Origin: Ancylostoma caninum
Taxonomy: Eukaryota > Nematoda > Chromadorea > Rhabditida > Ancylostomatidae
NCBI GenBank assembly: GCA_037903475.1
Contig: JBAJFG010000019.1
Location: 7,129,001 to 7,193,000, forward strand
Length of the DNA stretch: 64,000 nucleotides
Direction: 5' to 3'
The translations under genes and the position numbers were made by a program. Below are positions 5,640 through 59,690 of this stretch, in pieces. Within the stretch, counting starts at the first letter, position 1, and the number at the start of each line of letters is the position of its first letter. The notes under the pieces were generated by a model. That model saw nothing but the letters and a program-made list of their open reading frames with translations. It made no database searches and had not been told where the DNA came from.

Positions 5640-5830
5640 TTGGTGCGTATCTGAGCTAGATGCATCGCTGAATCTACCGACAGTATAGCTGTTAAGGTGC
5701 CTAAATTTACCCATAACCCGGCTCCCACCAGCATGTTTACCCGTACGTGATTTGTCTATGCTCAACTATTGCTCATGAGTAATCCTGCCCATAGATTCGG
5801 GATTACCCATCCTTCCAATGATGCATACTG
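5640..5830. repeat. GATTACCC/GGGTAATC palindromic repeat family, degenerate copy
   Basis: Family pieces present: GATGCATCGCTGAATCTACC near 5661, AAATTTACCCATAACCCGG near 5703, and GGGATTACCCATCC followed by ATGATGCAT near 5800-5825. Order and motifs match better copies at 15.4, 19.9 and 34.2-34.6 kb. Confidence 0.5.
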
Positions 5831-8800
5831 GCTCTGTAACCGTGTCACTGTCGTCTGCACAGAGCTCCCTTCGGTCGACTCCTTTCATGCAGAGCGCTGC
5901 TTGCTTAGAATATAGTCCCCCCTGTCGAACTTCAACCAAGAATTCCGCCGCGAACGTTCGGGAAAACACATTATTCTATTCAAATAGTTGTATCCTGGAA
6001 GGGACACGTACGTTCATAACAGCATTGCCCACTTACAATGGTCCTGGTTGAAAACATGCATTCTGATGGGGAATTAAATTTCACGCGAGTAGACAGAGGA
6101 AAATGACATGAACAGAGTGTTCTAGTACTCATATTTTTGACCCTATTCACTTAGTTTATCCCCTCATGGCATTTCAGACGGCAGCTTTTTCCTAGAAAAG
6201 AGTGAGAAAATGAAGCTTTAGTTAGGGCGTTGAATTGGGCTGAAGTATTCTCTCTACTCGGCATCCATCGAGTTCTCTTTGTGAGTTGTCCCCCTTTCCC
6301 TTTATGTGCTTTCAGCATTCTCTATGCACCCATTTTGCACTTCACGTTCGGTATTGGAAAGCATTTAATGTGCGTTGGACATCACTGGCACTTTCAAGTG
6401 CCATTATGTTCATGCGTTTTTTTTCTCAAAAGAAATAGGCAGAACGGCTTTCTTGAAGAACATAATCGTATAGTGAAGTGCTGGCGTTTTTGCTATAACA
6501 AGGCTCGCGCTTATATCAACGTGGATGCACAGTCCCAGCTCAGAATCGTTTTTGAGACTTTCGCTAAGTGATCCCATAAAAAACAACTCGAAAGCCGCTT
6601 TTTGAGCAAGGAATTTTTGTGGATCATGTGGGCGGAGCCAAGAGGTTACGTGGTTCTCAAGTCATGTGCTACTCACCCTATCTCATCATACATGGAGTGC
6701 AGTTTCTATTCCGTTAGGTTGTGGACGCGCAACTCTCAAGAAAGTGCAACTTCCTCCGGAATATGTGCTCCCGGGAGTGGATTAGGTCTGTTGAGGTTCA
6801 TTGCGGTCCAGATGGTTGTTCTCGTGCTCCACATGTTGTTGTAACGGCGCATGACGTATTTTGCCCATCTGTGTTTCGTGGATGCCATGTTTTCTGACGA
6901 GTCTATGATCTTTGACTTTATTAAGATGTTGCTTCTACTGCTTCCATCTATTCGTTTCTGGAAGACATCTTTCTACTGCCCTATGTATCGTTTTCTTAGT
7001 AGTGGAGATGCTTTTTTATTAGTTATAGATTTGAAAATGTACGTGGAATCAGTCATTTCAATGAGTTGCTGCAAAATCGATGCCGGACTTTGATAGCTGA
7101 TTTTGAGTCGTCATAACTAGGCCGAAGCTAAATTTTTCCGCAGATCTAGCACTCATTCAAATCAGCACATCATCGTCATTTTTCAGCTGAATAATACTTT
7201 CATATGGTATTAATAATAATTCATATGGTCCGAAATTAATCTTTTTGAAGCAAGCAAAATCAGCATAAGCGTTTCGAGCTGATGCATTTTCACGGCCTAT
7301 TAATTCTCTCAGGGAAGTATCCAACTGCCTGAATTTGTGGTCATCTAAGGGAGCAGTTCATTGATAAGGATTTTGAAAGAGATTCTCTATCCCACCAGTA
7401 TTTTCGTCCAGATCGTGTGAAGTTTAAATGTAAATAGTGATGTGTCGTGCAACATCATAGGATAATTTGAGGAAAACTCGTCCATTTTGTTCACCATCCC
7501 TGTTTATTACGAAACCCCAAAAACACCAAATTAATGAATAGCAGTACCACGTTCTAGAACCTGAACAGATCTTCTTGTGAAACCTCGTACTAGTGCCCTC
7601 AAAACGGCGTTGACGTTACCGAGTTTGCGTCTACTACTCCGAGACACACATCCCCAGAACCGCATAAAGGGTACCAGCAGTAGGCTACGCCTTTGTTGGA
7701 CATTCCCTCCCGCATACGCTGGCAATATTCGCCTTCCTAGCAGCTGCGTTCTTACCGAGTTATAATTCATGATACGGTTTGGGACGATTTTCCGCAAATG
7801 ACTACATTTCGAATAACTCTCGATTAACCGAATAAAATTGAAAAGAGAATAAAAAGGCAGAAACGAGAAAAAATGAGTTTTAAAGGTTTGAATACAAAAT
7901 TTGCTGTTGGAACATTGCTTCATAATATATTCCAAAGTTTGTGGATCGAAAATCCGACATCGATTTAGCAGTCATCTTTCCTGTTCTCACTCTGTTCCTT
8001 TTGCACTGCCGTAGAGGCTTTCTTGGCCGAGTGAGCAAGAGAGCCATCCTTTCGTGAAGAAAAGCATACTTTTTCCTATTCCTTCTATGATTCCTGCCAG
8101 TTCTTTCGCAGTCGTTACCTCAGTTTAGTGCGAGTGAAGAACATCGCGAATATATAGACATTTATCCGTAACTTAAAATCCGATAATTATTTTGTGCGCA
8201 TTTACTAAAAAAAGTATTTACTTGCTAAAAACCTCGCCGCTCGTCAAAAGACCAAAAGACCGACGACCATTTTGTATTTATTATACATAAATATAAAGAA
8301 TATTGCATATGGGACTTGAAGCGTTGTCATGCATAAACTGAAAGCACATTCATAACATGTTCGAGATGAAACGAATACATTTGTTTAGTCTGAAAGACCT
8401 CTTCTTCACAGAGCACACTATGATTTTACTAAAGTTCACAGCGGGAGGTTTTTAGAAAGAGCTGTACTTGCACGTTTTCTTCAGTTCGATGGCCACGTGA
8501 TGTGAGTCGTGCTTGGAACAATGCTTTCATTGTATGTGCATGTCTGGCATGGAAGGTAGAACAAGCGCTAATAATACCTCTATCCGCGAAAACATCGGTG
8601 GAAGCCATTGACGGAGGAGGTTTCTTGAAATTTGAGTTGGTGAGCTACGTAATAGAGACCTAGTCTCCATTGACTCTTTATGTTTGCAGGTTGGTAGTGT
8701 AGAGCGTACACGAGGCTGCAAGTTTTTTTAGCCCCAGCACTTTACTACCTACGCTAGCTAGCAGTGGTCGCCCTTAAACTCCACACAGTAGAGCAATAGT

Positions 8801-9600
8801 AAGGTACGGTTACCCAACTCGCTCTTGTCCTTAGCCGTTAAAAAAGAAAATAACAATATCGGGTACAGTTCTATGATACTAACCTGCAAACACGAAGACA
8901 TCTTGCCGAGGTTCAGGGAAAGTCGGTCATGGCGATTGACTCCTTACTTTTATGACTTGCGTTCATGCTGCTTTTCGGAAAGACTTGGAGCATCCCGATG
9001 ACACTACTAGTTCAGTACTTTGTGTTCACTCGACAGAGAGAAAAAACGCGAAATGCACCTTATCTGTGTGTTTCTCTATTTATTGTTGTTCTGATAGCGA
9101 GTGATTATAGCTATTACAAAAGATATTGGTAGAACAGTAGGACAAAAAAAAGTACTCAAGAAGTTCAATTGAATGTCAGTTGGATTAGCACAGCAGTGGC
9201 AATCAAATTAGAAAGCAAGTCGTTCTAAATGTCCTCCAAGAAAGATTCACTCCATATAACTGAAGAGTTTTTTTTTTACAAAGGTTTCTACGTCTACTAG
9301 AAATCATATCTTTATATCAGTGACTTCCTTGGAGAAACGGACCCAAATTCTTTTTCTCATTTGCGTTGGTGAGACAACTCGTGCATCCCATCTTCGAAAG
9401 AGAATGCCGGTCAGAGTCTCAATTCACTTGTATAATATTCAGTTTTTTGAGCCTGGGTTAAAGCATCCAATGCGAAATTGATGAGCTGGACTAGTAAGAA
9501 TGACGTGCCTCGCTTTATTCATGACCTTCACCTGCTTTTCAAACAACTGATCTTTCTCCTGTCTCCTCCTCAAGAACCATTGCTTTCAGAATGGCAACTT
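5831..9600. other. Intergenic, no recognisable gene
   Basis: Only short open frames on both strands. A moderately GC-rich patch at 7535-7770 is open on both strands and may be a repeat copy. No splice-consistent exon chain was found. Confidence 0.4.
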
Positions 9601-9626
9601 CTAAAGAGTACGCATGTACTCTTTAG
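9601..9626. repeat. Perfect 11-bp-arm hairpin
   Basis: CTAAAGAGTAC, loop GCAT, then its exact complement GTACTCTTTAG. It lies just left of the foldback element starting near 9635. Confidence 0.7.
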
Positions 9627-9634
9627 CGACTGTT

Positions 9635-9943: not shown

Positions 9944-9949
9944 ATACAT

Positions 9950-10627: not shown

Positions 10628-10836
10628 GGGTGTGTATCATCGTGAGGGAAAACGAGGCGGAGCTTTCCCGCCCTCCACGATCAACTCGTCCTCTGTCCAT
10701 TCAAACTTTGCATAGTCATGTATAGTGAAATCGCGCGCGAAAAGAACGAGTCAACCGTTTGGGGCGGGAGGAGGATTTGAACGAACCAATCACAGAACTG
10801 TACCAGCCCCGTTTTCCCTCACGATGATACACACCC
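10628..10836. mobile_element. Non-autonomous TIR element (MITE) with 9-bp target duplication
   Basis: Perfect 27-bp terminal inverted repeats (10628-10654 and 10810-10836) begin GGGTGTGTATCATCGTGAGG; similarity continues after one mismatch. Identical 9-mers GTATTTTTG flank the element (10619-10627 and 10837-10845). The 209-bp interior codes for nothing. A 9-bp duplication is typical of Mutator-like (MULE) elements, so that class is inferred. Confidence 0.85.
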
Positions 10837-11159: not shown

Positions 11160-11618
11160 ATCTCTACAATTCTTTGCGACCCAAGGTACTCTCAAATATC
11201 TTGGATCACTAGGCATTAATGTTGTTTCTCAGTTGATTCTCTTGAGCATGCGCGGGTAATCCTTTCTTCAACTGCAGCACACACCCTTCCGTAACACCAC
11301 CGTAACACGCATCCACCCAAACGCAATACGTTTGCGTTCGCAACAAGAACATCATCCTCTACACCTCTTATGATTTCACTTTTCTTAATGTTCAACCTTA
11401 GCCACGCGTCTGCCAGTGCTGACAGACGCAAATCGCTGGCTATGTGACAAGGGGTACGCTGCTGGTCTCTGATTGGTCGATTCATGCTCGCATGTCGGCT
11501 GCAGCCTTCGAGGGTATGAGCAGTTCTGCGTGGATATGGACAACTTTTCTAAGCTTGAATGAGACAGATGGATGTTATCGTAACCCACAAACTGTGAGAA
11601 GGTGGCCACCAATGTCAT
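11160..11618 (-). pseudogene. Possible reverse-transcriptase (LINE) relic, minus strand
   Basis: A minus-strand frame (11216-11485) contains a stretch like LRLNIKKSEI, which resembles the segment after the catalytic box of nematode non-LTR reverse transcriptases (pattern LRLNxKKTE). It then runs about 40 residues to VEERITRA, comparable to the following VxxRIxxA block. The FADD catalytic box was not found and the reading frame is broken. This is a weak family call from one motif and spacing. Confidence 0.25.
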
Positions 11619-15229: not shown

Positions 15230-15540
15230 GTGCATCACTGGGATTAGTCATGGTAAAAGTGTTGATACGCTCCAATTTAGTCTACATCTAGTACCCATCA
15301 AGATTTTTCCCTGAAGGTGGCTCTTTACAAAGCTGTTACCTGTGGGTAACCATATGAGAGTAACCATTCACATGGTAACCTCATCCGTAGTTGGAATACA
15401 TCATTAGATTACCCAGGCTAACCATGTTGGTGCCCGTTTAAATGGTGGATAAGTTTGCGTAGTGTTACCACTTTACCCTGGGTAATCTTAACGATGCATG
15501 CGGTTCCATATGGTAACCATATGAAGCATAGTGCACGAGA
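15230..15540. repeat. Palindromic GATTACCC/GGGTAATC repeat cluster
   Basis: The clearest unit is about 15398-15503: left arm CATCATTAGATTACCCAGG, right arm CCCTGGGTAATCTTAACGAT, complementary apart from a few bases, separated by about 55 bp. A partial left arm with ATCACTGGGATTAGTCATGG stands at about 15233. The flanks carry more TGGTAACC/GGTTACCA pieces. Confidence 0.75.
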
Positions 15541-19640: not shown

Positions 19641-19867
19641 GGTTTGGTACATTGGGTGGTAAAGTGGGTAGGCATCACTAGCAGTCCACCAATCTGACGT
19701 AGAGAAGAGTTGATCCGAAACGGTCAGGAGCCGTTGCTTTGAATGCACCAATCGCGCAACTGTAGCACCGCCCCTTTACCAGCATAATGGACCACACTAC
19801 TGGTAGAACCTTCTTCACCCATTTCGTAATATTTTTAAAGTTTGCCTCGGATTTGCTGGGGACTCCA

Positions 19868-19967
19868 TGCATTATTGATATTGCCCGGGTGAACGTGTTA
19901 ACGCCACGCAAATTTACCCATACTTAACAAGGTCAACACGTTTACCTTAGGTAATCCCGATCATGCA
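19868..19967. repeat. Palindromic GATTACCC/GGGTAATC unit, well preserved
   Basis: Left arm TGCATTATTGATATTGCCCG continuing GGTGAACGTGTTAACG; right arm CAACACGTTTACCTTAGGTA continuing ATCCCGATCATGCAC. The arms are complementary over about 38 bases with a few mismatches. The spacer carries AAATTTACCCAT, shared with other copies. Confidence 0.8.
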
Positions 19968-19979
19968 CATAGCCCTTGA

Positions 19980-23209: not shown

Positions 23210-25540
23210 CCCCATTATCTGAAGGGGAGAGCCCACGTGTGTATATATGTGCTCAGATGTTTTGAGAAGTCTCAAGCCCTTATACCACTACAACGATGTC
23301 CGAACTCCCTGGCGGGGGCCAGCAACGCATTGATCCTATTTTGGACTACGACGAAAAGAAGTGCTCCTCTTATGCTGCTTTTCTTCCTGATGCGGCTGGG
23401 ATTTGTCAGCAGCTTAGAATTCTTTCCCACTTGGGGGATTTTTTCTTGATCTCACTTCTATTACATTTTCACCTGTTCGCTGTGGTTACCGCTCTCATAA
23501 TGTTAATATTTCATATCGTTGTCGGTAAGCAATTTGCGATACCCACTGCTTTCTAACTCCATAAAAAATAACTAATAATAGAAGTTCATTTATTGAATTA
23601 GCTCTACCAATTCTTTGAATTTGTCTATCCAATTACTGACCAATCGTCCAGTCATTTTCTGGTGATATCCCGTATTAAAAGCATAGCGACAAGACCAAAA
23701 AACCAGTGGTTTTAGGATTTTAGGATCTGATTCCATTTTTACCCTATTTCTAGCTTCACTCTCTCAGCTCCGCCTATCGTTTTCCCACTTCTCCTACCTC
23801 ACATCACCTTGACTACAAACTTATGGGGGCTAAGCCCCTAAGAATGACTCATACCTCTGAAAGTGTTCAAGTGGCTGTTCAAATGTGCTGTTAAAGTGTA
23901 CAGGATGGGCCTTAAATACGTTAACAAAGAAACGGACAAGCAGGTAAAGAATTCTGATGTAATTTCGAACATTGTCGCATGATTTTTGTTCATTGCCTCC
24001 CAGTTAACAAGAGACAACACATCATCCATGAATATCCTCCATCTGCTAGAAATCAGACCCTGAGACGTTCAGTGAAATGGCAGACCGTGGCCCGCAAGTA
24101 TGCAGTTGGGGTAAAATTCATACCCCATATTTTCAAGTGCTTTTTCGAGAAGTCCCAATTTATAAGGGGTTTCAAGCAAGCATATTTCTCAGACATCACG
24201 AAACCCTACTAATCCAGTCAATGAGGTTCCGTTCAGTTGGGTTACCAATCGACTAACCAGTAGGTCCCAAAATATACTGTTCTCCTTGTCCCGAAACTGA
24301 CATAACCTGGGGGATGGAGAACTGTTTCGCGAGAACGTCCGAGAAGGAGCTTAGAATTGCGTTAGATTCAAGGCGGAGCTTCCTTCTTCCAGAATAAAAC
24401 ACGTGATGTTACCGTTTCTTGGCCTACCCTGTATTTCCTTACCTGAGGGCTGGGGTTTATGAAGCGATAACCAAGTAAAACAAGATACATAGTTAGCGTT
24501 GTTGGTTATAGTAGAGTACGTAGTGGCAGGAGAAGCTAATGATGGTTGCTGGCTTGCTAGCCTTGTTTTACCCGACTATGCACTAATAACTCTTAGCCTA
24601 AGTAAGATTTCTGCGACATGCAGAATATGGAAAGATACTTTTATAAGGAGATTTGACATGAAAGATGTATGAACTTCCAGCTTTTGCAACGGGGGGGGGG
24701 GGCGAGACGCCTTAATTCGATGTTCCCAAGTAAACATGTGAGCATGTGCATGCTGGAAAGCTTTTTGCAAGCTCTTCTGTTGGATTAGTTTATTGGAATT
24801 GGTGGGAATGTTAATTGCTGCTTCGAACAAAGCACTGCATTCTTTTAGGAAAATCGCCGGAAGCTTAACTCTTGAACGACTGGCTCTCTGCTTCATATAT
24901 ACAGCCGAGATGCTGTGGGATCAGCGCTGCGACCTGCAAGGTTTTTGGTGGTCCCTTTTCTTCTTCCTTCCATTTTCCGCATATGGATTATGTTCTTGGA
25001 TTCCTGAGATCATCCGAGGATTCCATGCAAGGTGACTACGTCAGCTCCGTGGATTCACCCGGATTAGCTGTGCTTTGATACCAAAGCAGCTTGGAAATGT
25101 TGTTGTGTCTGCGAGCTGTGGCCGCGAGATTATGTGCAGATCTTTGCATTGGCAATGTATTCTCATTCTTCTCTTCTAATCTCTTCTCAGACCCCTTGCT
25201 TACACCATTTCCTGTTAAATAATTATGATTTCTGGTTAAATCCGTGGTGAAGTTTGTCTACATGATGTTGAGCTCGTACCTACATCTCCCACTTCTCCTT
25301 CCGATCAGTGATTGAAGCAACCAGTGATCTCATCTGTGGCTAAAATTCGGGTCTTTTCCATGTTTCTCCACTTTTCTCGTCATTTTTCATGCTTATATTT
25401 GAATTGAGATAAAAATAACCAACTGAAATTAGCGGCAGCACAAAAAATGTCAAAATTGAAATTTTTTAAAGGACCTAATGCAAATGAGGTTCAGGTTGCA
25501 GGGCTTGGTCTTTCTTAGCTGTCTTCTTCTTCTGTTTAGC
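23210..25540. other. Intergenic, no recognisable gene
   Basis: Contains a long pure G run at about 24691-24703. Frames are short and show no domain. Confidence 0.4.
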
Positions 25541-25546
25541 TACAGG

Positions 25547-25714
25547 GAACTCCAAACGGCCGTGTGCAAAGGGCGAAACCGCGGCGTGGTGTGGAACTTG
25601 GGTGTCCGCTTCTAGCAGAAGCAGAGAAGCCAGAGCCACATGTAAAACCTCTGTGTCTCTGCCAAAGAGACCTGCGCCGCGATCGCGCCCCTTGCACACG
25701 GCCGTTTGGAATTC
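25547..25714. mobile_element. Foldback MITE-like element, 168 bp
   Basis: The ends GAACTCCAAACGGCCGTGTG (left) and the complement of the right end, GAATTCCAAACGGCCGTGTG, differ at one base. Complementarity continues inward to CGCGGCG with a few mismatches, so about 40-bp arms enclose about 90 bp. GC-rich against AT-rich flanks. No coding capacity. Confidence 0.75.
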
Positions 25715-27057
25715 TCAGTACCTTGATTACGTACGTAGTACATAGTGTACTGAACGAATGATGTATTCTGTACACATATTGGATATTCGAATATTCGACC
25801 TCGAATAAATCTAGAAGTGAAAAGTGCAGAAAAGTATGAGTCTTACAGCCATGGGCGAAAGAAAAAAGATTCTGTAAAACTCTTTGTTTCTGGAAAATTC
25901 AATTTTCCAGAAAGGGCCTGCGCATTATTAATTGATTTCATATATTCGATTTCTACTGGGTCACCACTCCCTTTATTTATTTATAATAGTGATTCCAAGG
26001 CCTCGCCAATAAATAATAGGTCATATATAAATTAGAGCAGACAACAAAAGAAAGCATTTCCTGCCAATGTTCAATTTTTTGCTGCCCTACTTTGCTAATA
26101 ATGTAATTGAAAATCCATAATATCTGCTTCTGTTCATGCATGCTTTGATAATGAAGCAATGGATCCTTCCTGACGAGAAAAAATGAAACAGCTCGTCAAC
26201 GCCATGGTTCTTTGGCGCATCCCGGGATTCCATAGAAACGCGCGAACCAATTCATGCTTCGCTGAAGTTCGCTTGCATCTGTTTCCGCTTAGTTTTTTGT
26301 TATCCCTCTCGCTCTATCTCTGTTTCTCATTCCCCACCTTCTTACTAAGGTCATATTTTTGGCCTTCTCTTTTGTTTTTCTTCTTGCAGCTCAAGGCCAT
26401 GTATACCCGGCCACAATATTGGTGCTTGATTTTTGTTCCACAAGTAGTCGCTGAACGGTCAACAAATCCACAAGTCTCCTCCGGATGGTAATCGGATTCA
26501 CCCCCGTGCCATTGTTAGGTCAGTGCTGGTTCGCGAAATTCACTTATCACGACGAAAACGCTTCAATGGCATCACTCGGACGGCTATTTTCGGATTACGT
26601 AGGCCTTAACGGCTTAACGACATTAACGCCTCCGGTCCAACACATGGTTCCATTGTTTTTTCCGGGTTTCACTGCGCTGGCTTCGACCAATCTGTCAACA
26701 ACGCCATTCTTCTTTCAGCTTTTCAGCTTTTGCGAATCAATTCTTTCAAGAAAAACCACCTAGCCTACATATGAGATTGAGCTTTCGAAACCTGTGACTC
26801 AGTGGTACGGAATGTGCACGTGCAGATTTCACTGCTCAACAGCGCATTTCCGTTCAACATTCCGCCATAAATCTTGCTTATGTGCCAGGATTTTGCGCCA
26901 GCGTTCGCTGAGGCCGCCGCCGCCTCCGGCTTAAGCTTTTCCTTCCTTGCACTTTCTCCAATCCCTTCCACTTCATCATATGATCCCTTCGGCTTCTCGT
27001 TCAGTCGTCATCGCTTTTCGGCTAAAAGCCCACATTCCAGAAAATTCCCCGTTCCAG
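25715..27057. promoter_or_regulatory. 5' flank of the NDNF gene
   Basis: No gene recognised. A GC-rich patch at 26890-26935 lies about 150 bases before the start. The acceptor GTTCCAG ends at 27057 and touches the ATG, so the mRNA 5' end is probably trans-spliced. No convincing TATA box close by. Confidence 0.4.
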
Positions 27058-30894: not shown

Positions 30895-33800
30895 ACAATA
30901 TGATTACCAACGATAAGGAAAATATTATACTGGTAAGACCATAAAAAATTGTAAAGGAATGTCGTCTATTTACCCGTTTCGTTCCCTCATTCATGTATGG
31001 ATAGGTAGGTCCCCCCAGAGTTCAAGCTTGAGTCAAGCTTCATGCAAGCTTCAGTTTTCCAACGCTAGCAACGAATTTTGGCTATGAATGCCATGCAACT
31101 GGCTAGAAATGGAGCAGATTCCATGCATATTTCATCATATTGTCAGCCACGGTTTTTCCCATGCAAACATCGTTTGATTGATGCAATCTCCTTTCTTGTG
31201 CACTCCCGTGTTCAACCGCTCTTCTCCAGTTACTGTCTGGCAGCTGAAATTAATTTTATTGGTGTCGCATAAAACAGTAATTTCTTCATTAAACCTTCAA
31301 ATTGGTAATAATCACCAAAGCCACTCGTTTTCAAGAAAGTGACTTTCTCAGATTTCATGGGTCCAACGTCGTCTATGTACTAATCACTACTTACATCTCT
31401 CACGTATGTACTTCATATGCACGATATATATCTGTTAGCTAATGGAGCGCACTTTTTCCATAGGTTTCGGCCGTTATCGCAAAGTGCCCGCCAGAGTGAA
31501 ATCGAAAACGCTTATGAGCCTATGGGGCTTTTTCACCCGGGCAAAAACTGCAAATTTCCCCCGTTCATCACCAGCAACTCACAGGCAGCCGCAAATGTGG
31601 CAAATTTGGTGCTGAATTGGTTCGCTGAATGGCTTCTTTCGAGGTGGCAAAAACGTGTGGCGCCACTTCCGCAGCCGGGTACAAGTGCTTTCGAGGCTCG
31701 AAATGGGTAGCTACGGGGCTTTAGATGAGGGATTTCCCTCAGACTGTCGTCGGGAAGAAGCAACTATGAGAGAGAGGCGTTCTGGCTTAGATGGAGCTTA
31801 TGGTGGCGGAGAATGGGCCTTTGGTGTTTAAGCTGAAGGATATCTTGAAGGATTAGGCATTTCAAGTGCAAAGTTAAACCTGTTTACCTGCTGTAGTTTA
31901 TACTTAGAGTGCTGCCATAAGCATCCTTGCTATCCTTATTTCCTTATATCCTCGCTTTTTGTCTTATCCTTTCGAGTTTTTTCTTGCTTGGTGCACCTTC
32001 CCGTGTAGAAAAAGATAAACAGTAAATAAAAAGAAGAAAAGAAATAGAAGCAAATAAATCCCAGAAAATTCGCAGGTTGGCGTTTTATTGCTGTGCTGGG
32101 GCTTTGACAAAATTATCTGGGTTCATCTTTTATTATGGAGTACTAAAAAGCCAAATAACCTTGCCTAGAGTATGCTACAGTACACCACATGAAGCATTTC
32201 CATTTCCGTTGTCTAAATTGCTTCACTAACTCCCATTTCGTCTTTCCTCTCTTCCTAATTTTTTTCTATTCTTTTCGCTGGCTCTGTTGCAATGAAATTT
32301 TCACTTACAGACATCTCCGAGCTAACTCCGAACGAGTCCTTGGATTCGCCGAAGCTCGAGTTGATAGCCGGCCAAGAGGATGACCGGCGAATGACGTTCT
32401 TCAAGCAGCATGTCTCGAGAGGTGAGCATAGAGTGAGACGTGGTTACTCGGGGATCTGTAAGGCTACTGTAGCGCTTTGTCGCCAGGGAATTCCTATTGG
32501 GACCCTTATTATTACCGTGACGCTGGCTGCTTATCACACATTCAGCTGAAATGGGACTTGAACCTGCCCAGTGGGATTTAAAAATAGCTTTAGCTGGATA
32601 TAGCTACAGTAAAGGTTCAGATTTGATATCGTTTTGGACTTTAAAACGTATCTCATGACAGTTCTTCTATCATTCCGTTGTTCTCCACTGTTGTTCAGAC
32701 AATATGCCCCAAATCTCTACGTGGGACCATCTACATATCCCAATGGCCTAGCAATAAGATATTCCCTGATAATCTCCATCATTGCCGTAGAGTTTTAGAG
32801 CTGTAATTCGGAAGGTACAGGGAACGTGAATCACGATTGCACCTCTCCGCGGGCCTGGAACGCCGCGCCACCTACGCGGCGCGGCCGAGCGCTGTGGATG
32901 TCGGTGTGTTGCCTCGCCCGCGCCGCGTAGGTGGTGCGGCGCTCCAGGCCGGGGGGGGGGGCAGTTGTGATTCACGCTCCCTGTACCCTTGTCTTCAGAT
33001 ACTGTAACTGAACTAGTTTGTACTAGTTTGAGCATTTTATAGTACAGCTATTCTATTTGTGGCTCTGATGATAGATTTCAAGGATAATTTACCTGAGCAG
33101 CATCAATGAACTGTGGGGAAGAGGGGGGGGGGGTGGGGGTGGGGAATGTTTCTGTTGTGTAGATTCACCTAGACTCTACAGTTACAGATGAAGAAGCTTA
33201 CCGTGATTACTACGGAATTTTCCCTTCCAGGTTGAAAGATGTAATGGATATGTTTCTAAAGAAGCTCTGTTTTTATGATTTAAGCGGCTTTCAAGGCCAT
33301 TCACATCACGTGCAGCTTTTCTGTGAGGATGTCGTTCCCATATCCTGAAAAATGACCCGTTAGGCTTCCCAATCCCGAAGATTAAATCCTATTGTTTTGT
33401 TTGAGAATTTTCCGGCAAAATGGTGAATTCCCATCTGCGAGAGAGCTACCGTAACCATGAGCAACATCACTGGCAAGCTTAAAAAGAGGGGAATCACTTA
33501 TTTCTTTTCTAGAACATAGTTACTGCTTGAGTTATCAGTAAAATTGCACTGGCGGCTGAAGCATCATACAAAGGACGCTGCAAAAGTTGTACATCTTGCA
33601 GCAAGTTGTCGACAACTGACACAAAAACCCTCCCACTATATCCGTCACACAAAGACATTCCACAGAGACCGCTGCTTTGACGACGACGCTACCGTACCTC
33701 TTCCGCGCCCTGGATCTGCTGTCGTCATACACGTGTTTTGTGTGACTGTGTTGGAATGCAGTAGAGCATCGGCCCGCGGTGTCACATGACATCGCGCGGG

Positions 33801-36800
33801 CTTGACCCTGAGGCCATGGGTCGTCCGCGGCCGCCGCGGCGTCGACGACGGGGGCGAACAGTTGCAGAGCAGCGCCGAATGGCTGCTGAGCGCACATTCC
33901 ACGCATTCCACGGACTCGACAACTGTCTCCACGTTAGGGCCGATTGATCATCATGTGCTCAACGAGAACGCGATTGACTCGCCCGGGGGAAATGGGGATG
34001 GGCCAGCAACGTATGAGGGAAAAAACAGTGGAGTGGCAGAGATTTTTTACGGATTTTTCAAAGGACAAATTCAACAACTCTAGCAGAATGGTCAGATTTA
34101 ACCTTTGCGGCTTATTTTTTTCCACTTTATTTTGACGTCTTCCCCGTCAACACTAACCTAGGGGCCGAGTGCATAACTTAGAATACCCGGAATAAATGCG
34201 TCAACACCTCTCTCTCTAAATTTACCCATCATTACCAGGGCCATCGACACATTCACCCTGGGTAATTTCAATGAAGCATCTACGCCTAGATCAGGGAGCG
34301 GAAACATCATTGAGATTACCCATGGTAAACGCGTTGACGTACTTCTTTTAAATTTTACTTTGCGTCCATCGTATGTTTTACCCTACACGCCCTTATCCAT
34401 AACCAGTTGCTATCCATGGGTAATCATATCCATTGGCACGAGATCTCTAATCGTTCCAGTGATGCATTGATGTCCAGGGCCTAGATGCATCACTGCGGTT
34501 ACCCATCATAAGCGTGTTGACGCCCATGGTAACTATGAGTGAATCAAGGGAAGTCAGCGCGTTACCCTGGGTAATCTCAATAATGCGTGCGACCCCAGAG
34601 CAAATTCCATTACCGCTCGGTAAATTTGATTCTTTTGTGGATATCCCTGAGCAAAGTAAATTTAAGAGGACAAATTTGGTGGTGTTGGGCCATCCAGGAC
34701 CTGAGCTCGCATTTTATGGATAAATTGGCTTTATGCACTCAGCTGCCTTGGACTACTGAGCACCATCTCTATGAGTCACCAGCCATTCGTGGTTTTCCGG
34801 ATGTTTCATCTCCTCTCATCATGGTTAACTGTGGCAGTTCGACGAGCATTCACGGCGTCGTTAACAATAGAGCTGAAAAACCGCTACTATGACGGGATAC
34901 TTACTAGCGAAATATGTTTTTAGTAGAATTTCGAGGAGAACAATGGATCTCTCACGACTAGAACTCCTTTGTCTCGGCTTTATTGTTGACGACGCCGTGA
35001 AGCTCCAATTTGCTCTGCCTAAAGGAATCCTTGGGAACTCTGGGCAGCACTTACTGCTGGCCTCAAGGAGTTTTAAAATCGAATCCAGAAGTTCATCGAG
35101 CCACATAGGTTAATTAAGCACCTACAGGAGAGTCGGAAGCTCTACGGACTGCGTGGTCGGAATTTTATTACGAATACGCTCTTCAACGATTCAGGGAGGC
35201 CTAAAAAGGGATAGCATCTTAGTGCTGAGGCTGCACTTTTCACTGTGTTCCGGGCGAGTTATCCTGAAGCTCTGTGTATTTGGGGGCTGTGAGATGCTGT
35301 GAAGTCACCGGCATTTAGATGTTTTTCGAGGGAATTTTCTCAGAAAACTCCTATTTTCAGCAAAGGGTCAGTCGAATTGAATGATGTTCGAATATCCGAA
35401 TGCATCCACGTGGTACATAGTTTCGGAGCTGTAGCAGTGTTTTGTGAGCTTCCAAGAATGAGAAAGTAAAAGAAAAAGTTCCTTTCAGTTCTTCTACCCG
35501 CCCCCATGTTAGTGGTTGTATTTGAAAATTCAAATAATTATTCGAAACTTATTCGATCCGGTTAACACTTCAATTTTCATTCCTTCACTGCTTTTTCCTG
35601 GAAATTCCATGCCTTTGCCGGGAAACTTCCTCCTTTTTTCGCTTGCTAGCAGTTCTATCACCAGGTATTGAGCCATCATGACGTCAAACATGGCAATAAC
35701 GAAATTTTGGTCGGAATTTATGGTTGTTCAACAGAGGTGAAGGCAATGAACGACACTTCAGCGAATTGAAAGGTTTTTTCCACTTGGAATGGATGGTAGG
35801 GATCAGTGGGAGGGAAAGCGCATGCGGGTGCATGAGCCCGAACATGATTGGGTTCAAGTGAAACTTTTGCGTCCAGACAGCTTTTTCAAGGCATTTTTCG
35901 CCCTCAGAGAGTGAAAATTTCAATTCCAGGACCTCTGCTGCTGGTGCTCACCTCGTCATTCCCATCGTCAGCCCGTTTGTTCCTCTCACATTCACAAGAT
36001 GAGATGGACGCTTTTTATCCGCCACTACCGCATGATACACGTCTAGCACATGCTGTTTCGAAGAGCGATGAAAATCCTGAGACGAATCAGGTGCTGATCA
36101 CATGGAAGGCCGTCGATCGAGTGAGGTTCGTTGTTTTGGAGCCGTTCCAGACGAGTGCCTTCTCAATAATTGAAGAAGTGGCTGTTTTTCTGCGCTCATT
36201 AGCTTTTTTTGTTGCTTGAGCCTTTGCTGAGTTTGGTGTGGGCGAGGAGGGGGAGGGGGGAGGGACGAAAGACTAGAAGAGATTCTCCACCACGTCCACT
36301 CCGTGGTGTTGAAACATCGTCTAGGTCAGGGTTCTTTAAAAAAGGAATATTTCCGGCCTTGAAGATGTGCGTAAGTTGGTGCATCGGTGCAAGAGTGAAG
36401 TGCACCTTAGAAGAGAAGAACTAAGGAATATGAGAACCATGTTGAATATCGAGATAGGACTCTATTTGTTGGATAAAATTAAGTTTAAGCTATTCACTTA
36501 CTGTTTTGATTTTTCAAATAAAATATAGTAGTTCTTGGGCGTTTCATTTTTACCGCTCATTAAGTCTTATAGGACACATGCATCAATAGTGGCCTATTTT
36601 GAAGTCTTAATCTCAGCCTAAGGTATCAAATAGCATAGGAACTTGAAAAAATCGTAATATCCTTTCTTTTCGGAAGATACGTCTTGCAGAAGGGAATTTT
36701 ATTGCAATGAGAACGATTTTTCCACTTCTTGGCTTTATTTTGAGACAGTTTTCTCGTTTAAGTTTCAGTAACGTAATCCAGAATAAAGCTCAGAATACAG

Positions 36801-39800: not shown

Positions 39801-42800
39801 TGAGAAAACGAAATGTCATAGGGCGCAGAAATATTTGTGCTCTGCTCGAAAGAACACGTGCGACAAAAACGTTTCCGGTTGTTGGCTGGAGTTTTTTGAG
39901 GGAATTTACATCGTGTCGTACGAAACAAAAACGACGAAAAACACTAGTTGAAGGGAATTTTACATCGTTCTGAAAGCACCCAGAAGCGGCTGCTCAAAGA
40001 GTGTGGTTTTACTCAGAGGTTTTCCTTCTTTCATGGCTAGAAACTCAGAAACGAAGAGAAGTTCACAAAAATTTCTTCTTTGTCATGGGGTTTCGCGTTC
40101 AATAGACTAGGTAACCCATCACATCACCTATACCTGATTTATGCTAGCCTTAGATAAATGAGAATGAGTAGGAAGACAAGACAGCGAAGAAAGGTTACTC
40201 CAAAAGTCAAAGGTTATTTTATTTACTTTTATTATTGTTATTTTTTCGTTTTTGGAGCGTGAAGCAGACTTGGAGCCGGATACATTGTTGGAATGATGGT
40301 TTACCTCATACCTATGGGTAAGATTACCCGTGGGTAGCAGTTAGGTATTGGCAACGTCATGCATGCATAGCTAACCGTATTGAAAGGCAACTTTTGAAGG
40401 GTGAATTTGGGTACTTTAGCACATTTACCATAGGTAATCTCAATAATCCAACCGGTCCCAGGGTTTGATCTGGATTCAGATGCATCATTGAAAGGTTGAG
40501 TAACCTTATACCTATGGATACAATCACCCATGGGTAGTAACCGGGTGTAGACAAAGTCACGGGTCGGTGAACATATTGATGGATGCCGTGTAAATGGTAA
40601 ATTTGCGTATGTTAACATATCTATACTAGGATTAATCCCAGTGATGAATCCGGACTCAAAGTTGTGGTCTGCTAAGCACCCTAACATTAGAAGAAGAGGG
40701 TCAAACGAACCACCCGTTATAGAAATTCATTTTTTGTGTTCGATTTTTCTTCCGATGTAATGCCCTTCTGGGCCCAAATGCATCCTTGGAAAGGTTGGTA
40801 ACCCGTGGGTAGCATGTGAGTATATATAGACAACGTTAGGTACGAGTGAATATGTTGGTGGATGCAACGTAAAGGGTAAATTTGAGAACACTGACCTGAC
40901 CATATTTAACCTCAACAATGCGTCAAGACTCAGAGAGAGAATGCCCTCTCTCTCTTTATACCTATGGAAGGATAGAAGAATTGGTTAAATAGGAACCTTA
41001 CATCGTGTGCTCAGTAGGTTCTGCCCCTCGTCTAGGTTATGTGGCTGATGATACGAGGGTTTGGATATCGGATTATTAGAGATTAGTAGAATTCATGGTA
41101 ACATTCAGAACTCATGGCTCATCCTCTACATACACATTGTTTCAGGTCCTGCTCATAGTCCATGCCTGCGATGGCTATGTTCGTATGTCTGTGTACAGAA
41201 ATGGGAAGCTACTCAAACGAAGCGAGCCGTTTTCGGGATTCAGAAGGTTTGTTGTGAAAAACAGCCATCACAGGCCACTAGGGCATCATCTTACTATTGT
41301 GCTACTTCGTCCATTGTGAGAAGCTCATGGCTCCTGTGCCCATATTTATGATTCCTCCCGGGATGGTGATGATCTTTTCACCCATCCAAAGCGAACGCGT
41401 TTTCCTAGCAAACTATGATTTGCCTTTCCCTTTTCACCAATATTTGTCATCCTTGACTGAGATTAGTTGCTGCTACAAACTGAACTTACCTTTATCCGAA
41501 AAACTCGCCCAGTTCGGAGGGCGGGTAACTCTTAACCTTCCTGGGAACCTTCATAAAAAAGGGTACTGAACCTATTGGTACTTGATGGCGTCCAATGGGA
41601 CACGAGCATAATGTGCGATGTATTCAGAAAAGGGTTACGTCGATTCACAATTGCCGTGTTCCCTCATCAAACCTTCGTTTACTTAGTTTTACTTCATTTT
41701 GAAGTGATTTTTGAAGTTGCTGCCAAGGATCAATCATTCTTGCAAAAACATACCTCTTTTGTTTGGGGGACTTATGGATAAATAGGGAGATTGGACGTCT
41801 CTGGGCAGAATCGTAGGTCCTGTTGCAGAATGCACTTCATTCCCAGTAAGAGGACTCTGCGTAAAAAATCCACATATGTGAACTTGCTTCACCATCATCG
41901 AAGCCTATTCGTCATGAATTAAGCCCCTGCTTTGCAGATTTCTAATCGTCAACGTCCATTCTGGTCAGCTCCGATTTCAAATTACTAACGACGACTCCAG
42001 ATCGAAGAGCGTCCATCTATGGGCTAGCACTCAAGCGGAAAAATCACCATATCCAAAATTGCCTGAGGATACGAGGTAAGCATCCCATTAAATTCGAGAG
42101 TCATTGCCCATAATCATGTTTTTTTTGGAAAAATTCCCGTATGTATGGTTCTGAGAAGAGAGGCGTCATTTTTGGGGAGAGGGGTGTAATCCCCGGGTAA
42201 TAATTCTCTCAGCACATCGCAACTCATCCACATTAACAATAGAAGCACTTGCCGAACTTGCCTAGACGCGTTGGACAAGTGCACTTCGTAGAGATACGTG
42301 GGGATAGGGTCCCTGGGGATGGACGGGTTTGGATCGAGTGTCGGGGATCCGCGCTAAGCACTCGGTTTCACGTGCTCCACCATTAATATATGTAGTTTAG
42401 ATGGACACAGAGCAGTGTGGATTTCTCGTTCCGAGACCCAAATGCGGAAGTGGGTGGTTCAGCTGTCAGCGCTTGTTCTCTAGGCGAAGACGTCACTACC
42501 ATTGAGGAAACACCCCGGGCTAAACATGTGCCGGCGCCTGCAGCTATTATGATTGATGGCATAATTATGTGCGAGCAGACAAGGGACCGAAGCAAGGCCG
42601 CGCTTATTTGCGGGCCTAAGGGTGTAAACAGGGGACGACCGGCTGAGGATAGACTGAAATCTATGTCGAAGAAGGAAATTGTCCAGAATTTCCTGGAATT
42701 CGACTAGGAATTGCTCTTTTGGGTGTTGCTGTCCTTTTCTAGCATTTTGACCACAGCTTTTAACAAGATGAAGGTTCAGCGGCTTCCCTGCTTCCTGTTC

Positions 42801-54956: not shown

Positions 54957-55029
54957 GAGAAATGCAGCAGGAAACCGGAAGGACCGCAGGTCACCTGTCG
55001 GTTCCTCCGGTTGCCTGCTGCATTTCTTC
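54957..55029. repeat. ~33-bp-arm hairpin
   Basis: GAAATGCAGCAGGAAACCGG continuing AAGGACCGCAGGT folds on ACCTGTCGGTTCCTCCGGTT continuing GCCTGCTGCATTTC with four or five mismatches and almost no loop. Short GCAGCAG/GGAAGGACCGCAG pieces also repeat directly upstream (54900-54945). Confidence 0.7.
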
Positions 55030-56229
55030 CAAAAAATTGTCTGAGAACCTCTTCAACGTGCTTTCGAACGGATTCGATTTGTCTGTAAAGTATTAATCAA
55101 TCCACTTATTTTTCATTTACGAACTTTATATTTATGGCAGACTTGTTCAGAGTCAAAATATCCACAAAAAAAAAAACCAAATAGAGCAGCAAAAAGACTT
55201 CATTCTGTCAATGACAGGTAGATGAATGTTTAATAACTAAATTGCATCTTAATTACCAAGGATTTTCTCCAGAACACTGCACAATAACAATGCAAACTTC
55301 ATATAATGTCTCAATATAACCAAAAACTGTCTAGTAAGGCAAACGAGTTCATTGTTATCTGCTAAGCGATGAGAAAGAACGATTTACATAAATTCCTGTA
55401 GAAAAAAAAACAAAAGGTTTCTTGCATCGTCGACGAGCTTATGGTAAAACAAAATCGTTAGAAAAGATAAAGAAAAGTCCCAAAAAATCAGAAAAAGTGT
55501 AGTGGCAACTATGTATATCCTCGAAAGTAGATAACAATAGTCCTGGAAATTCGAACCATCGATGGAGCATAATGTAACCCCTCACAGCAAGTAAAAATGT
55601 CATGTGGAACAGGAAAATATTTATAATCCTTGCGAAAATTCGAGAATAGTGAATTCAGGAATAATGAAACTAAGGACTCAAATAAGGAAAAGGCCTGGAT
55701 ACTCAGTAAATCTCTTTGGAAGAGTCATGTAAAGCTACCGTCATGGCTAGATAACGTGCAGAGAAAGAATAAAACGACACAAAATGATACAAAAACGTGT
55801 GGAGGAAGAGCTTCGAAGGCAAGAAACAAGGACCAGAAGGGCCTGGAAAAAGATTACGCGGCGTAAAAAGTGAAGAAAGAAACGATGGAAAGTATGCATA
55901 GGAATGGCCTTGCTCGACCTCTTACCTCGGTCGAGGTTTTCTGAGGATTTTCCATGTAACGTTCACGCCCAGCAGTACGTAAATAGACCAGGCACAGTGT
56001 GTTGTGTACCACTTAAGTGCCCACTAGAGTGAAAAGTAGGGGAAAACGAGTAGATGATTTATGAAAAACTAAGCCATCGGCTGAGTGTGCGTGCCTGCCA
56101 CTTCCGGTGCAACTCGCGCTGCAAATAGCCTCAGCGACGATGTCAAGGATGCACTTATTCCCACGCCCACTCAGCCTCAGCATCCATGTGTGTAGCAGTT
56201 AGGGGATTAGCATTGATGTATGCTGATCA

Positions 56230-56530
56230 ACTTAACGTCGCCCCCTAGTCGGTCGCCGGCGGCGGCGGCACACTTATGACGCTGACGTTGAGGCCGTAGG
56301 TTAACGAAGCGAAGCCTTCCGGTGGCATACGCGAGCGGCCGCAGCAGCTCGCCGAGTAAATATTGGCACTAACCGTCCGCCGCCACCGCCAGCCCGCCAT
56401 CCTGACGACCACGGCCGGGTCACAAGCCCGTCTGAGTGGAAAAATAGCATCGCAAACAACGCCCGCAGCTCGGCGGTCCACAGTCAACTGTTTCGGAGTT
56501 GGCCGGACGGCTGCCGGTTGAATGGTTCGC
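56230..56530. other. GC-rich island
   Basis: About 300 bp, clearly GC-rich, with a 95-codon minus frame (56245-56532) rich in Arg/Ala and Pro but with no domain recognised. Most likely regulatory or repeat DNA. Confidence 0.35.
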
Positions 56531-56599
56531 ATCTTGCTGGAGAGGGAAGGTTAGGGGCACACACTATTTTCATAATTTTTTAATGGTTATAACAACAAT

Positions 56600-58200
56600 A
56601 ATTGGTGGTTTTGGTAATTGAATGGTTCCTTTAATGTTAGGGGCTCCTGATATAAGTTTTCCGAAGCGTGGTTCAAGGTTATAAGGAGCCATTACTACAG
56701 GGACAAAGCAGGAAATCACCAGTTATGAGGGCAAGGTGAATTTTAATGACACAAAAATTCAAGGAACAAGTATTTTGAGTGAAAAGTAATGACCCCGAAA
56801 AAATTATAGGTGGTGAGGAGAGTCTTCAGAAGTCTGTCTCACTAAGCCTTCATGTTTCTTGCATTTTGTTTTTTTTTTGTTGCTTTATTTCCTCAATGCT
56901 TTTCCATCATTAAGTTACTAGCCAGGTTATAAAATCCATATTTCGGCGCAAATCAGAGCCGAGCCAAGCCTGGCCCACTGGGTTATGTGCCGCAACGGAT
57001 TTCAAAGTAGGGTTACAGGAATTGTGGCGTACTGTCTTCATACATTCGGCAAACAGACAGATAAAAGGATAACTAGGCGAGCGAATAGCGTGAGTGCTAT
57101 CACTCATCCATGGTATCCAGAGAATCAGGATTTTAGCTCTGTACTTAATGGATGGTGTTGCAAGGCCAAATTTTGCCTCGGATCCACTCTGCCAGGGAAT
57201 GCTTACTGAGCCACCTAATAAAATTGGACAGTTTTACCTCCTTAAGCAGTTATTTCCTGGGCCTTTAGGACCAGTCTAAACTAAATATCTATCTATCACC
57301 AAATCAGCTCAAGGCCGCAAGGATTTGTTCGAATTTACACCAATTCCTGTAGCTAGGAGCGCATTCCACACGTCATTACCTAGCAGAATAAATCTATAAT
57401 CTATGTATGACCATTATGGATGGATGCTAATCCAAAATCCGAAATAAAATTGGGCAGTTTTACCTCTGTAAGCAGCTATTTCCTGGGTCTTTAGTACCAG
57501 TAGCATAAAAAATGGGAACATTACTGAGGTATACATACTTACTTTAGGGTACAAATAATACAGAACATAAGCGATAACAGTATACAACATGAAAGCGTTG
57601 GAAGTAAAGATGAGGAAGAATTTTATTTATTCAATTGTTCACGTCTGCTCAGTGGCAAGTGGGCCGATGAAAGAAAATCGAATGAAAAAATGAGCCCCAC
57701 CATCAATGTTGCCTTATTTCCTTTTGAAAAAAGGCTAGACGAAAAACATTCCCTGATACGGTGGCTTCTCATGAGAGGTCACATGGCCGCAATTTCGTAG
57801 TTCTAAGAGAGGGACAAGATCTGGATGAAGCACTCCTCTCCTTTATTATCTCCAACAAAATAATGAAGATTTTTCTATCCTACAGGAAAAGTTGTAAGAA
57901 ACGATTTAAAAATTGGAAAACGTTCACAGTGAAATCATCTGGTTTGCGTAATTATGGCAAAGTTGGGCGTGACAGGGAAACGCACATTGTTCAAAGAAAA
58001 TTCTGCTGCTGACTAGATATGAGTTGTTAGGAATAGGCTCAAGGAGTTGACCCAGAAATGTTCTGAAAGCCCAGAATTCATCTAAGACACTGAAGGCAAT
58101 TCTAAGGACTGTCTTAACGTCAGCCCAAAACCCAAGGAGCTCTCAAAAACCTGACATGAATCTTTCCTACCATTTCTACTGGTTAAAGCAAAGACACAGC
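56600..58200. other. Intergenic, no recognisable gene
   Basis: AT-rich. Contains a ~62-bp direct repeat (57217-57279 and 57443-57504). Confidence 0.4.
57217..57504. repeat. ~62-bp direct repeat, 226 bp apart
   Basis: AATAAAATTGG(A/G)CAGTTTTACCTC...GCAG(T/C)TATTTCCTGGG(C/T)CTTTAG occurs at 57217-57279 and again at 57443-57504 in the same direction with a handful of differences. Confidence 0.75.
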
Positions 58201-58219
58201 AACGGTCGCACTAGGTGGT

Positions 58220-58400
58220 AGCAAGTGAAGGAGTGTGGTGTATCACACGCGCGCCCGTCGTGTGCCCGACGGGTGCGACCGGGCGCAGCACCGCCCGTTC
58301 GTCCACGGCGGGATTACGGTAGCGTGTGCGCTCGCACGCGACACACGACGTCGTACAGTAGCCCGCGCCGGCCGCACACTCGCACATACTAGAGATTCAT
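58220..58400. other. GC-rich island
   Basis: Very GC-rich, with CpG-containing short palindromes (CCCGTCG...CGACGGG near 58253-58272). A 93-codon Arg-rich frame crosses it but has no recognised domain. Confidence 0.35.
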
Positions 58401-59529
58401 CTAGATATAGCGATAATTCGCGGAGAGATTTCGTAGAATCGCCTACGGGGTCGTCGGGGGCTATGGATCTTCTCGCTGAGCGAACATCTCAGAGATGCGG
58501 AAAGAGGATGGGTTGAGAAACGGGGGAGAGCTGGGAAAATTGGACAGAAATGGGATCCTGGAACGAACAGAGATCTAGGACAGGCCTGTAGATCTGGGAT
58601 TTCAATTGCTTCCCTGTGATCCACACCAAGATATGTCCTTCATTTCATTTTCTTAATGATACTCCTCGTTATGGTGTACCTTAGGTACTGTAAAGTAATG
58701 GTAAAGCTCCTCAGATATTGGCTGCAGTATTCAAACCTATGTCAAAGTTTAGAAACTGGGCTATCAAGCCTCATATGGAAAAAAAAATCTCGGAATTGAT
58801 CGCAATTCGGTATTCTTGAGAGCTTAGAGGACCTTGCAGGGAAAGCAGCATACTCGGAAGGCTTAGGACTTTCAACTACTTCCCATCTTTATCTGTTTAT
58901 ATACTCGTTAGATCGGTAAAAATGTTGCTTGACAGTACAGTAGCTCGTATATTCACGGTCAGCATATAGGCTTGAAACAAAGAGGTCCGTTTAAGAGTAA
59001 TTAAAGATAGATTTACATCTTTATCAGATTTATTTTTTCATGGGACTCGAATGGATTCGTGCTTAAAAAGCAGTGGTCATATTACTCCTCTGTACTTTCT
59101 AACGATAGTTACTGCAAAAATTCTTTTCCCCTAAAGCCCTTTCTGGATGTATCTTCAGAAGAAACCTTAGAAAGACGGAATACAGCAGTTCCATCTCAAA
59201 AAAAAGCCACCATCTCACAAATGCACGAACGGGAAAATTCCAAAACATTTTTCTCGTGAAGTAGTGGACCACTTAACATACCAAGATGTTGCTCTTCAGT
59301 GTGGCATTCTCGAAAAGTGCTAAAAAAATTGAAGGTTCCAGCAAAATGATGAATATGCCATTGTGGTTCCAGCTTATCTTGACAAGAAATCTTAAGATTA
59401 ATGGACTAGGAAGTTCGCGACAGTGGTCGAAAATAAGCGATTTATCTTACCACTTGGACGTTTTTTCCCACTCAGGTAAGAGCTAGCATTTGTCACGTGG
59501 AGTGTGTAAAACGTCTGGACCGGCACGCA

Positions 59530-59690
59530 ATAGTAAAAACATGGGTAATCCCACATTGATGGGTTCTGTTACCTATGACCCTCAGCTGGATAGAGTCAAA
59601 CTTCGATGCGTAGGTTTACCCAGCATGTGTACTCCTAGCAATAGGTTATGACTGAGAAGCGATGTGCGGGAATCTGTGGGCGCCACAATG
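59530..59690. repeat. Palindromic GATTACCC/GGGTAATC family, degenerate copy
   Basis: AACATGGGTAATCCCACATTGATG at the left and GCGTAGGTTTACCCAGCATG at the right, in the family's order but decayed. Confidence 0.4.

What the first reader, a model, noticed from the sequence alone, without database searches (positions are those of the whole stretch)
5640..59690. Dispersed ~105-bp palindromic repeat family with a GATTACCC/GGGTAATC core
The same unit recurs near 5.7, 15.4, 15.7-16.1, 19.9, 34.2-34.6, 40.3-40.9, 51.9-52.1 and 59.5 kb. Each arm is about 38-40 bp: ATGCATNATTGAGATTACCC, then GGTAAACGTGTTGACG. The arms face each other across a spacer that often has AAATTTACCCAT. The best units are 15398-15503, 19868-19967 and 34482-34588. 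Some loci hold several units in a row, so it behaves both like a foldback transposon and like a short satellite. I know of no named family with these ends. The core of each arm is itself close to self-complementary, which could bind a dimeric protein.
Basis: seen in the sequence. Interest (0 to 1): 0.75.

Follow-up and report, generated by a model that had tools for sequence, protein, structure and literature searches.

The report
Old mini-transposon family that self-stacks
The repeats are old, non-coding cut-and-paste mini-transposons in two sizes (about 120 and 180 bases) that insert at the sequence CCNGG and sometimes next to or inside one another; they look like a new or unrecognised family of a well-known kind of mobile DNA.

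Summary
The repeat family is real, but it is two related forms, not one 105-bp palindrome. In 64 kb there are 14 units: 5 short palindromes (S, ~120 bp) and 9 asymmetric units (L, ~182 bp) sharing the S arm at one end. The true ends lie 7 bp outside ATGCAT: TIR GGCCCGGATGCATCATTGAG, with 1,181 matches in the 348-Mb genome at up to 2 mismatches, reversed pattern 0. Units sit in a CCNGG-like target with a 3-bp CNG duplication: significant for S, not for L alone, perfect in a 1,853-bp relative, and supported by one nested insertion. Neighbours sharing one CNG peak at the predicted spacing (17 bp: 9 places; 16: 2; 18: 0). S arms show no upkeep of pairing. Best reading: old MITEs of a PIF/Harbinger-like (PHIS) group, closest to NuwaI (CWG duplications). 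Their regenerated target explains the clusters. No transposase with these ends was found in the searches made. Identity with the strongylid repeat HcRep (111-182 bp units) could not be tested. Interest is modest.

The parts
5653..5833 (+). L unit 1 (~182-bp MITE form)
   Evidence: nhmmer 132 bits
15223..15390 (+).
   Evidence: nhmmer 62 bits
15389..15506 (+). S unit 1 (palindrome)
   Evidence: nhmmer 86 bits
15719..15880 (+). L unit 3
   Evidence: nhmmer 92 bits
16008..16145 (+). S unit 2, with ~16-bp insertion in the spacer
   Evidence: nhmmer 68 bits; alignment
19860..19975 (-). S unit 3
   Evidence: nhmmer 84 bits
34162..34286 (-). S unit 4
   Evidence: nhmmer 83 bits
34292..34294 (.). CAG target triplet left of L unit 4
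   Evidence: sequence
34295..34474 (+). L unit 4
   Evidence: nhmmer 135 bits
34475..34477 (.). CAG triplet shared by L unit 4 and S unit 5 (7+3+7 bp between ATGCAT motifs)
   Evidence: sequence; 3-bp gap
34478..34595 (+). S unit 5
   Evidence: nhmmer 88 bits
34596..34598 (.). CAG triplet right of S unit 5
   Evidence: sequence
40273..40458 (-). L unit 5
   Evidence: nhmmer 139 bits
40473..40656 (-). L unit 6
   Evidence: nhmmer 136 bits
40771..40930 (-). L unit 7
   Evidence: nhmmer 87 bits
51932..52112 (-). L unit 8
   Evidence: nhmmer 119 bits
59518..59965 (-). L unit 9, split by ~261-bp insert at about 59603-59863
   Evidence: two nhmmer pieces, profile 4-100 (40 bits) and 98-175 (23 bits); sequence

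Best explanation
A family of old, non-autonomous DNA transposons (MITEs). Each copy is cut and pasted by a transposase supplied in trans that recognises the ends GGCCCGGATGCATCATTGAG and inserts into CCNGG, duplicating CNG. The L form looks like an internal-deletion derivative of longer (1.2-1.9 kb) elements with the same ends. The S form looks like the L 5' end duplicated head to head. Because the terminal GG/CC and the duplicated CNG re-create CCNGG at both ends, later copies can land exactly beside, or within, earlier ones. This makes mixed clusters that resemble short satellites. The most likely helper is a PIF/Harbinger-like (PHIS superfamily) transposase of the NuwaI type. Shown: the ends, longer relatives with the same ends, the duplication in S, one nested insertion, shared-triplet junctions. 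Inferred: cut-and-paste, the order of events, the superfamily, and the helper.
For: Sharp ends: conservation stops 10-11 bp outside ATGCAT in 27 window ends and in 42 L and 19 S genomic rows. TIR 20-mer at <=2 mismatches: 602+579 genome matches, reversed control 0+0. Duplication: S, n=19, middle base of CNG agrees in 12 v 5.5 expected, p=0.002; stricter overlapping set, S n=16, 10 v 4.5, p=0.003, 3-bp match p=0.0001. Element L094 (1,853 bp) lies between CTG and CTG in a CCTGG context. Nested insertion: in L055 an S sits in an L; joining the flanks minus 3 bp aligns to the L consensus without a gap (score 212.0; 209.6 with a 3-base gap if only S is removed), at CCTGG. Junction spacing 17: 10 matches at 9 places; 18: none; 16: 3 matches at 2 places; reversed controls 0. 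L094 ends match both ends of L, 90 and 57 bp. 13 places (itself included) carry the L094 right end at 96-100% identity. PIF/Harbinger transposases are present: 112 DDE_Tnp_4 matches, and one family ends in GGCCGGTAG or GGCCGATAG preceded by CTG, CTA and CAG in its three copies. PMC4482050 (passages and section 7): NuwaI has CWG duplications and TIRs usually starting GGG.
Against: The boundary was chosen after scanning 100 offset pairs and 8 lengths on the same rows, so the S p-values are optimistic; in that scan the best offset for L was a different one (z=3.1). For L alone the duplication is not significant (n=42, 15 v 12.6, p=0.23; n=27, 9 v 8.3, p=0.46), plausibly through age (19-23% diverged in sample and window). 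The pooled signal is modest (middle base p=0.019; length 3 z=2.0, length 1 z=1.2, others below 0.5). The nested copy has CTG on one side and CTA on the other, and its host L differs from the consensus around the site. No transposase gene flanked by the family's own TIR was found: none of the 112 listed DDE_Tnp_4 matches (150 of 165 candidates scored) lies within 10 kb of the 13 young right ends (coordinates compared by eye), and five ORFs of L094 show no Pfam transposase. Of the seven ends of PIF-like elements read only two (CTG, CAG) are clean CWG before GGCC; no copy was read at both ends with a matching triplet, and the far end of L080/L084 reads differently.
Confidence: 0.75

Rival explanations
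1. It is the already named strongylid repeat HcRep/TcRep (Haemonchus, Teladorsagia) in this species; then the family is known by name although its nature as a MITE may not be.
For: PMC3156134 (passages read): HcRep-like units of 111-182 bp, seven adjoining copies, more than 3000 genome matches; the nearly complete S and L units here (about 110-138 and 146-204 bp, consensus 120 and 182) and the clustering agree closely.
Against: No sequence comparison was possible (accessions U86701 and M84610 are not held). That cluster lies next to a GTCT microsatellite; none of the 15 TRF rows in the window is GTCT. Length agreement alone is weak.
Confidence: 0.3
2. MITEs of another superfamily with 3-bp duplications, for example the pogo-related Tc4/Tc5 of nematodes (fold-back, TNA in CTNAG; recalled), or a hAT family misread by its CAGGG-like start.
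For: Fold-back form and a 3-bp duplication with a free middle base inside a 5-bp palindromic target parallel Tc4/Tc5 (recalled). NuwaII of the PHIS superfamily also uses C|TNA|G (PMC4482050, passages).
Against: The target here is CCNGG, not CTNAG; the scan, which included 8-bp lengths, put none among its 12 best rows; DDE_Tnp_4 elements with GGCC ends exist in the same genome.
Confidence: 0.13
3. A conserved structured RNA or a dimeric protein-binding element kept by selection.
For: S is palindromic; TACCC/GGGTA occurs 10 times in the 182-bp L consensus against about 0.27 per 182 bp in the window.
Against: No Rfam match at gathering scores in the window. Arms within a copy are no more complementary than arms of different copies. 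Copies drift to about 20% divergence.
Confidence: 0.03
4. A short satellite amplified by unequal crossing-over.
For: Clusters of 3-4 units at 15.2-16.1, 34.2-34.6 and 40.3-40.9 kb; 15 of 44 fetched loci with a unit hold more than one.
Against: No tandem array of these units by TRF; mixed forms, orientations and spacings, and 29 of the 44 loci show a single unit in the stretch seen (many stretches are only ~700 bp); one unit sits inside another with a 3-bp gain.
Confidence: 0.03

Closest known systems
NuwaI group, PHIS (PIF/Harbinger-ISL2EU-Spy) superfamily (PMC4482050)
   Same: 3-bp CWG-type duplication; termini rich in G then C (GGG there, GGCC here); TIR length within 12-61 bp.
   Different: Section 7 lists 16 host genomes (fish, beetle, crustacean, mollusc, anthozoan), no nematode; here the middle base is not strictly A/T; no transposase or Myb/SANT gene was found with these TIRs.
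HcRep / TcRep of strongylid nematodes (PMC3156134)
   Same: Unit lengths 111-182 bp, adjoining clusters, thousands of matches.
   Different: Sequence not compared; described in the passages read as a repeat element cluster, not as a transposon family.
Turmoil-1, a Harbinger of C. elegans (PMC2572040)
   Same: Harbinger superfamily in a nematode; Harbinger elements usually have 3-bp duplications; gene-fragment capture, perhaps as in L094.
   Different: 5-kb element with 760-bp inverted repeats (passages).
Tc4/Tc5 of C. elegans (recalled)
   Same: Fold-back shape; 3-bp duplication in a 5-bp palindromic target.
   Different: TNA in CTNAG, pogo-type transposase.

Membership tests
MITE (non-autonomous DNA transposon) | short, non-coding, defined terminal inverted repeats | tested here: met
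   consensus 120 and 182 bp with TIR GGCCCGGATGCATCATTG; 1,181 v 0 TIR matches
MITE (non-autonomous DNA transposon) | target-site duplication | tested here: met
   S p=0.002-0.003 (boundary chosen after a scan); L094 CTG/CTG; L055 nested site; not significant for L alone
MITE (non-autonomous DNA transposon) | ends shared with a longer element | tested here: met
   L094, 1,853 bp; facing TIR pairs 1,169 and 1,321 bp apart on C4 and C13
NuwaI / PHIS | CWG target duplication | tested here: inconclusive
   CNG, mostly A or T in the middle (left T15 A13 G9 C6; right A21 T14 G4 C4); G and C also occur, in decayed copies
NuwaI / PHIS | TIR begins GGG (usually) | tested here: inconclusive
   reads CNG|GGCC; GGG only if the last G of the triplet is counted
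NuwaI / PHIS | DDE transposase with the same TIRs | tested here: inconclusive
   112 DDE_Tnp_4 matches, none within 10 kb of the 13 young copies; L094 ORFs without a transposase hit; left-end search not answered
HcRep | sequence similarity to U86701/M84610 | not testable with these tools
   accessions not held; 12 strings searched in papers gave no relevant hit
Tc4/Tc5 | TNA duplication in CTNAG (recalled) | tested here: not met
   target is CCNGG
satellite DNA | tandem periodic array | tested here: not met
   TRF on the window; unit spacing
structured RNA | arms of a copy kept complementary | tested here: not met
   0.738 within v 0.730 between; no Rfam hit

The most novel reading that the evidence does not exclude
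A NuwaI-type (CNG-duplicating) Harbinger lineage in this genome whose insertion re-creates its own CCNGG target at both ends, so that copies stack with a shared triplet. The lineage moved recently (13 longer relatives with right ends at 96-100% identity), so its helper transposase may still exist in the genome. Strongylid 'HcRep' clusters may be the same phenomenon.
Probability: 0.35. Interest if true: 0.5.

Novelty: new member of a known kind. Interest (0 to 1): 0.33.

Why it matters
If right, it gives a simple mechanical reason (target regeneration) for why a dispersed mini-transposon can look like a short satellite. It also offers a testable identity for an old named strongylid repeat. For genome annotation it is a family of some thousands to tens of thousands of copies (about 0.6% of the sampled DNA).

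Tried and rejected
Rfam and tRNA scans of the window: nothing. Phage and plasmid collections: no match. A 19-base pattern in viral and genome collections gave 5 and 13 stretches; the ten best profile hits printed per model there reach at most 14.9 bits (L005) and otherwise 12.3, mostly over the stretch of the pattern that selected them; by eye L005 looks like ordinary coding DNA (not tested further). I call these chance. hAT was considered because of CAGGG-like starts and dropped for lack of an 8-bp signal. Paper searches: palindromic/strongylid terms (21), HcRep terms, consensus strings (25: 0 papers; 55: 1 unrelated paper), Harbinger/CWG (64), hookworm/MITE (83); of these I saw listings, plus passages of PMC3156134, PMC4482050 (also section 7), PMC12595863 (nothing relevant) and PMC2572040. 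Gene content of the window: 10 of 108 ORFs of 85 aa or more against Pfam, two weak hits under the cut-off. The search meant to show a nematode spliced leader in the genome (136) did not complete.
Full report
What was checked. The 8-mer GATTACCC occurs 10 times in the window against 1.36 expected, with at most 6 in 100 shuffles. The 16-mer of the arm occurs 6 times at up to 3 mismatches against 0.31. Searching the window with single units finds the others down to E=1e-13. Profiles built from the units score at most 7.5 bits in 21 control sequences.

Two forms. Alignment and profile mapping give 14 units. Five are S, a palindrome with ~38-bp arms. Nine are L, ~182 bp; one end of L is the S arm plus AAATTTACCC, and the other end is inverted to it for only ~20 bp. 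The reverse of S aligns with the first ~60 bp of L and then turns back into the arm, so S looks like a head-to-head duplication of the L end. The units cover 2,046 bp of the window. At 14 per 64 kb the window is about four times richer than the sampled stretches.

Abundance. The genome is 348 Mb in 638 contigs. In 20 stretches of 10 kb at regular positions, 9 groups (window-only models), or 10 units after splitting, lie in 6 of 20 stretches and cover 1,243 bp. The stretches lie on contigs that had a hit, a slight bias. Scaled up this is of the order of 17,000 units, with a Poisson range of about 8,000-32,000 (my arithmetic; clustering widens it). Mean divergence from consensus in that sample is about 19% (3 L, 7 S). 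Copies found by BLAST are closer to the consensus (16-17%), as expected from their selection.

Ends and target. Conservation in 27 window ends runs to position -11 outside ATGCAT and then stops. The consensus from 42 L and 19 S rows ends in the same way. Two of the 42 L rows are one place fetched twice (L025, L068), and two pairs (L052; L074/L075) are near-identical duplications. L068 and L075 were left out of the models, and L068, L075 and the second L052 copy out. The outermost conserved letters read C-N-G then GGCCCGG at the left and CCGGGCC then C-N-G at the right. I settled on this boundary after a scan of 100 offset pairs and 8 lengths, so the following p-values are optimistic. For S the middle letters agree left to right in 12 of 19 against 5.5 expected (p=0.002), and in 10 of 16 in the stricter, overlapping set (p=0.003). 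For L alone they do not (15 of 42 v 12.6; 9 of 27 v 8.3). In the pooled set length 3 has z=2.0, length 1 z=1.2 and lengths 2, 4, 5 and 6 below 0.5.

Direct insertions. In L055 an S unit interrupts an L unit; with S and three bases removed, the flanks align to the L consensus without a gap, at CCTGG (score 212.0 against 209.6 with a 3-base gap when only S is removed). The two triplets are CTG and CTA, and the host L differs from the consensus around the site. In the window, L unit 4 and S unit 5 read CAG-L-CAG-S-CAG. In L077 an S and an L in opposite orientation share one CAG; the outer triplet of S is CAG and that of L is CAA. Because each insertion leaves CCNGG at both of its ends, I predicted neighbours with exactly 7+3+7=17 bases between ATGCAT motifs. 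At up to 3 mismatches the genome has 10 matches at 9 places for 17, none for 18 (a pattern with one more free base), and 3 matches at 2 places for 16; reversed controls are all 0. Of the 9 triplets at 17, five read CTG or CAG and the others CTT, CTA, TAG and CCG. Counts are small, and the window's own junction is too decayed to be among them.

Longer relatives. The first 100 places listed show facing ends 1,169 (C4), 1,321 (C13) and 1,853 bp (C67) apart. The last was fetched (L094): it lies between CTG and CTG, and its two ends match the two ends of L over 90 and 57 bp. Its right end recurs at 13 places (itself included) at 96-100% identity over 184-190 bases; the next full-length match is 87% (40 of 102 candidates scored). 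This points to a recent burst. Five of its ORFs carry no Pfam transposase. Two inner pieces match a distant stretch L043 at 79-81%, 1.5 kb apart there, possibly captured or another repeat.

Helper. The genome holds 112 DDE_Tnp_4 matches, including four with identical scores (150 of 165 candidates scored). Where homology between copies ends, three copies read CTG, CTA and CAG before GGCCGGTAG/GGCCGATAG, and four others read CTTG or CTG before (G)GCCCGTAG; the far end of L080/L084 reads differently, and no copy was read at both ends with a matching triplet. These may be cousins by end and target; they are not shown to be the partner: none of the 112 lies within 10 kb of the 13 young copies by coordinate comparison, and the family's profiles find nothing above 4 bits in the 12 transposase loci. 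In PMC4482050 (passages and section 7) the NuwaI group has CWG duplications, TIRs usually starting GGG, and no nematode among its listed hosts.

No maintained structure. S arms agree with their own partner at 0.738 and with arms of other copies at about 0.730 over 30 columns, so the palindrome is inherited and decaying. Rfam finds nothing at gathering scores.

Known or new. PMC3156134 (passages) describes HcRep clusters in Haemonchus with units of 111-182 bp and over 3000 matches. That is a striking agreement in size and layout, but I could not compare sequences. Paper searches for the consensus strings found nothing relevant. I therefore file it as a new member of a known kind, with about a 30% chance that it already bears the name HcRep.

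Noticed in passing
window 32814-32987 and 25538-25723: Two other GC-rich inverted-repeat elements with similar starts (GGTACAGGGAACG..., AGCTACAGGGAAC...), probably another MITE family.
   Followed up: no
window 62269-63194: 42-nt inverted ends (88%) 842 bp apart beginning TTAAATACAGGGTGCGCC, a likely separate DNA transposon.
   Followed up: no
window 60896-61101; 10628-10836; 63503-63565: Further inverted repeats with 30-37-nt arms at 92-97% complementarity, likely younger MITEs or hairpins.
   Followed up: no
window 59603-59863: About 261 bp of unknown DNA splits L unit 9; by eye its outer bases weakly resemble the family's own ends.
   Followed up: partly
L094:1033-1104 and 1180-1343: Inner pieces of the 1,853-bp relative match L043 at 79-81% but 1.5 kb apart there; possible captured gene fragment. 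L094 also has internal direct and inverted copies of a ~180-bp block.
   Followed up: partly
window 11219-11548 (-): ORF of 110 aa that by eye resembles a reverse transcriptase fragment of a retrotransposon; Pfam gave only a weak hit under the cut-off, to a nematode antimicrobial peptide family.
   Followed up: no
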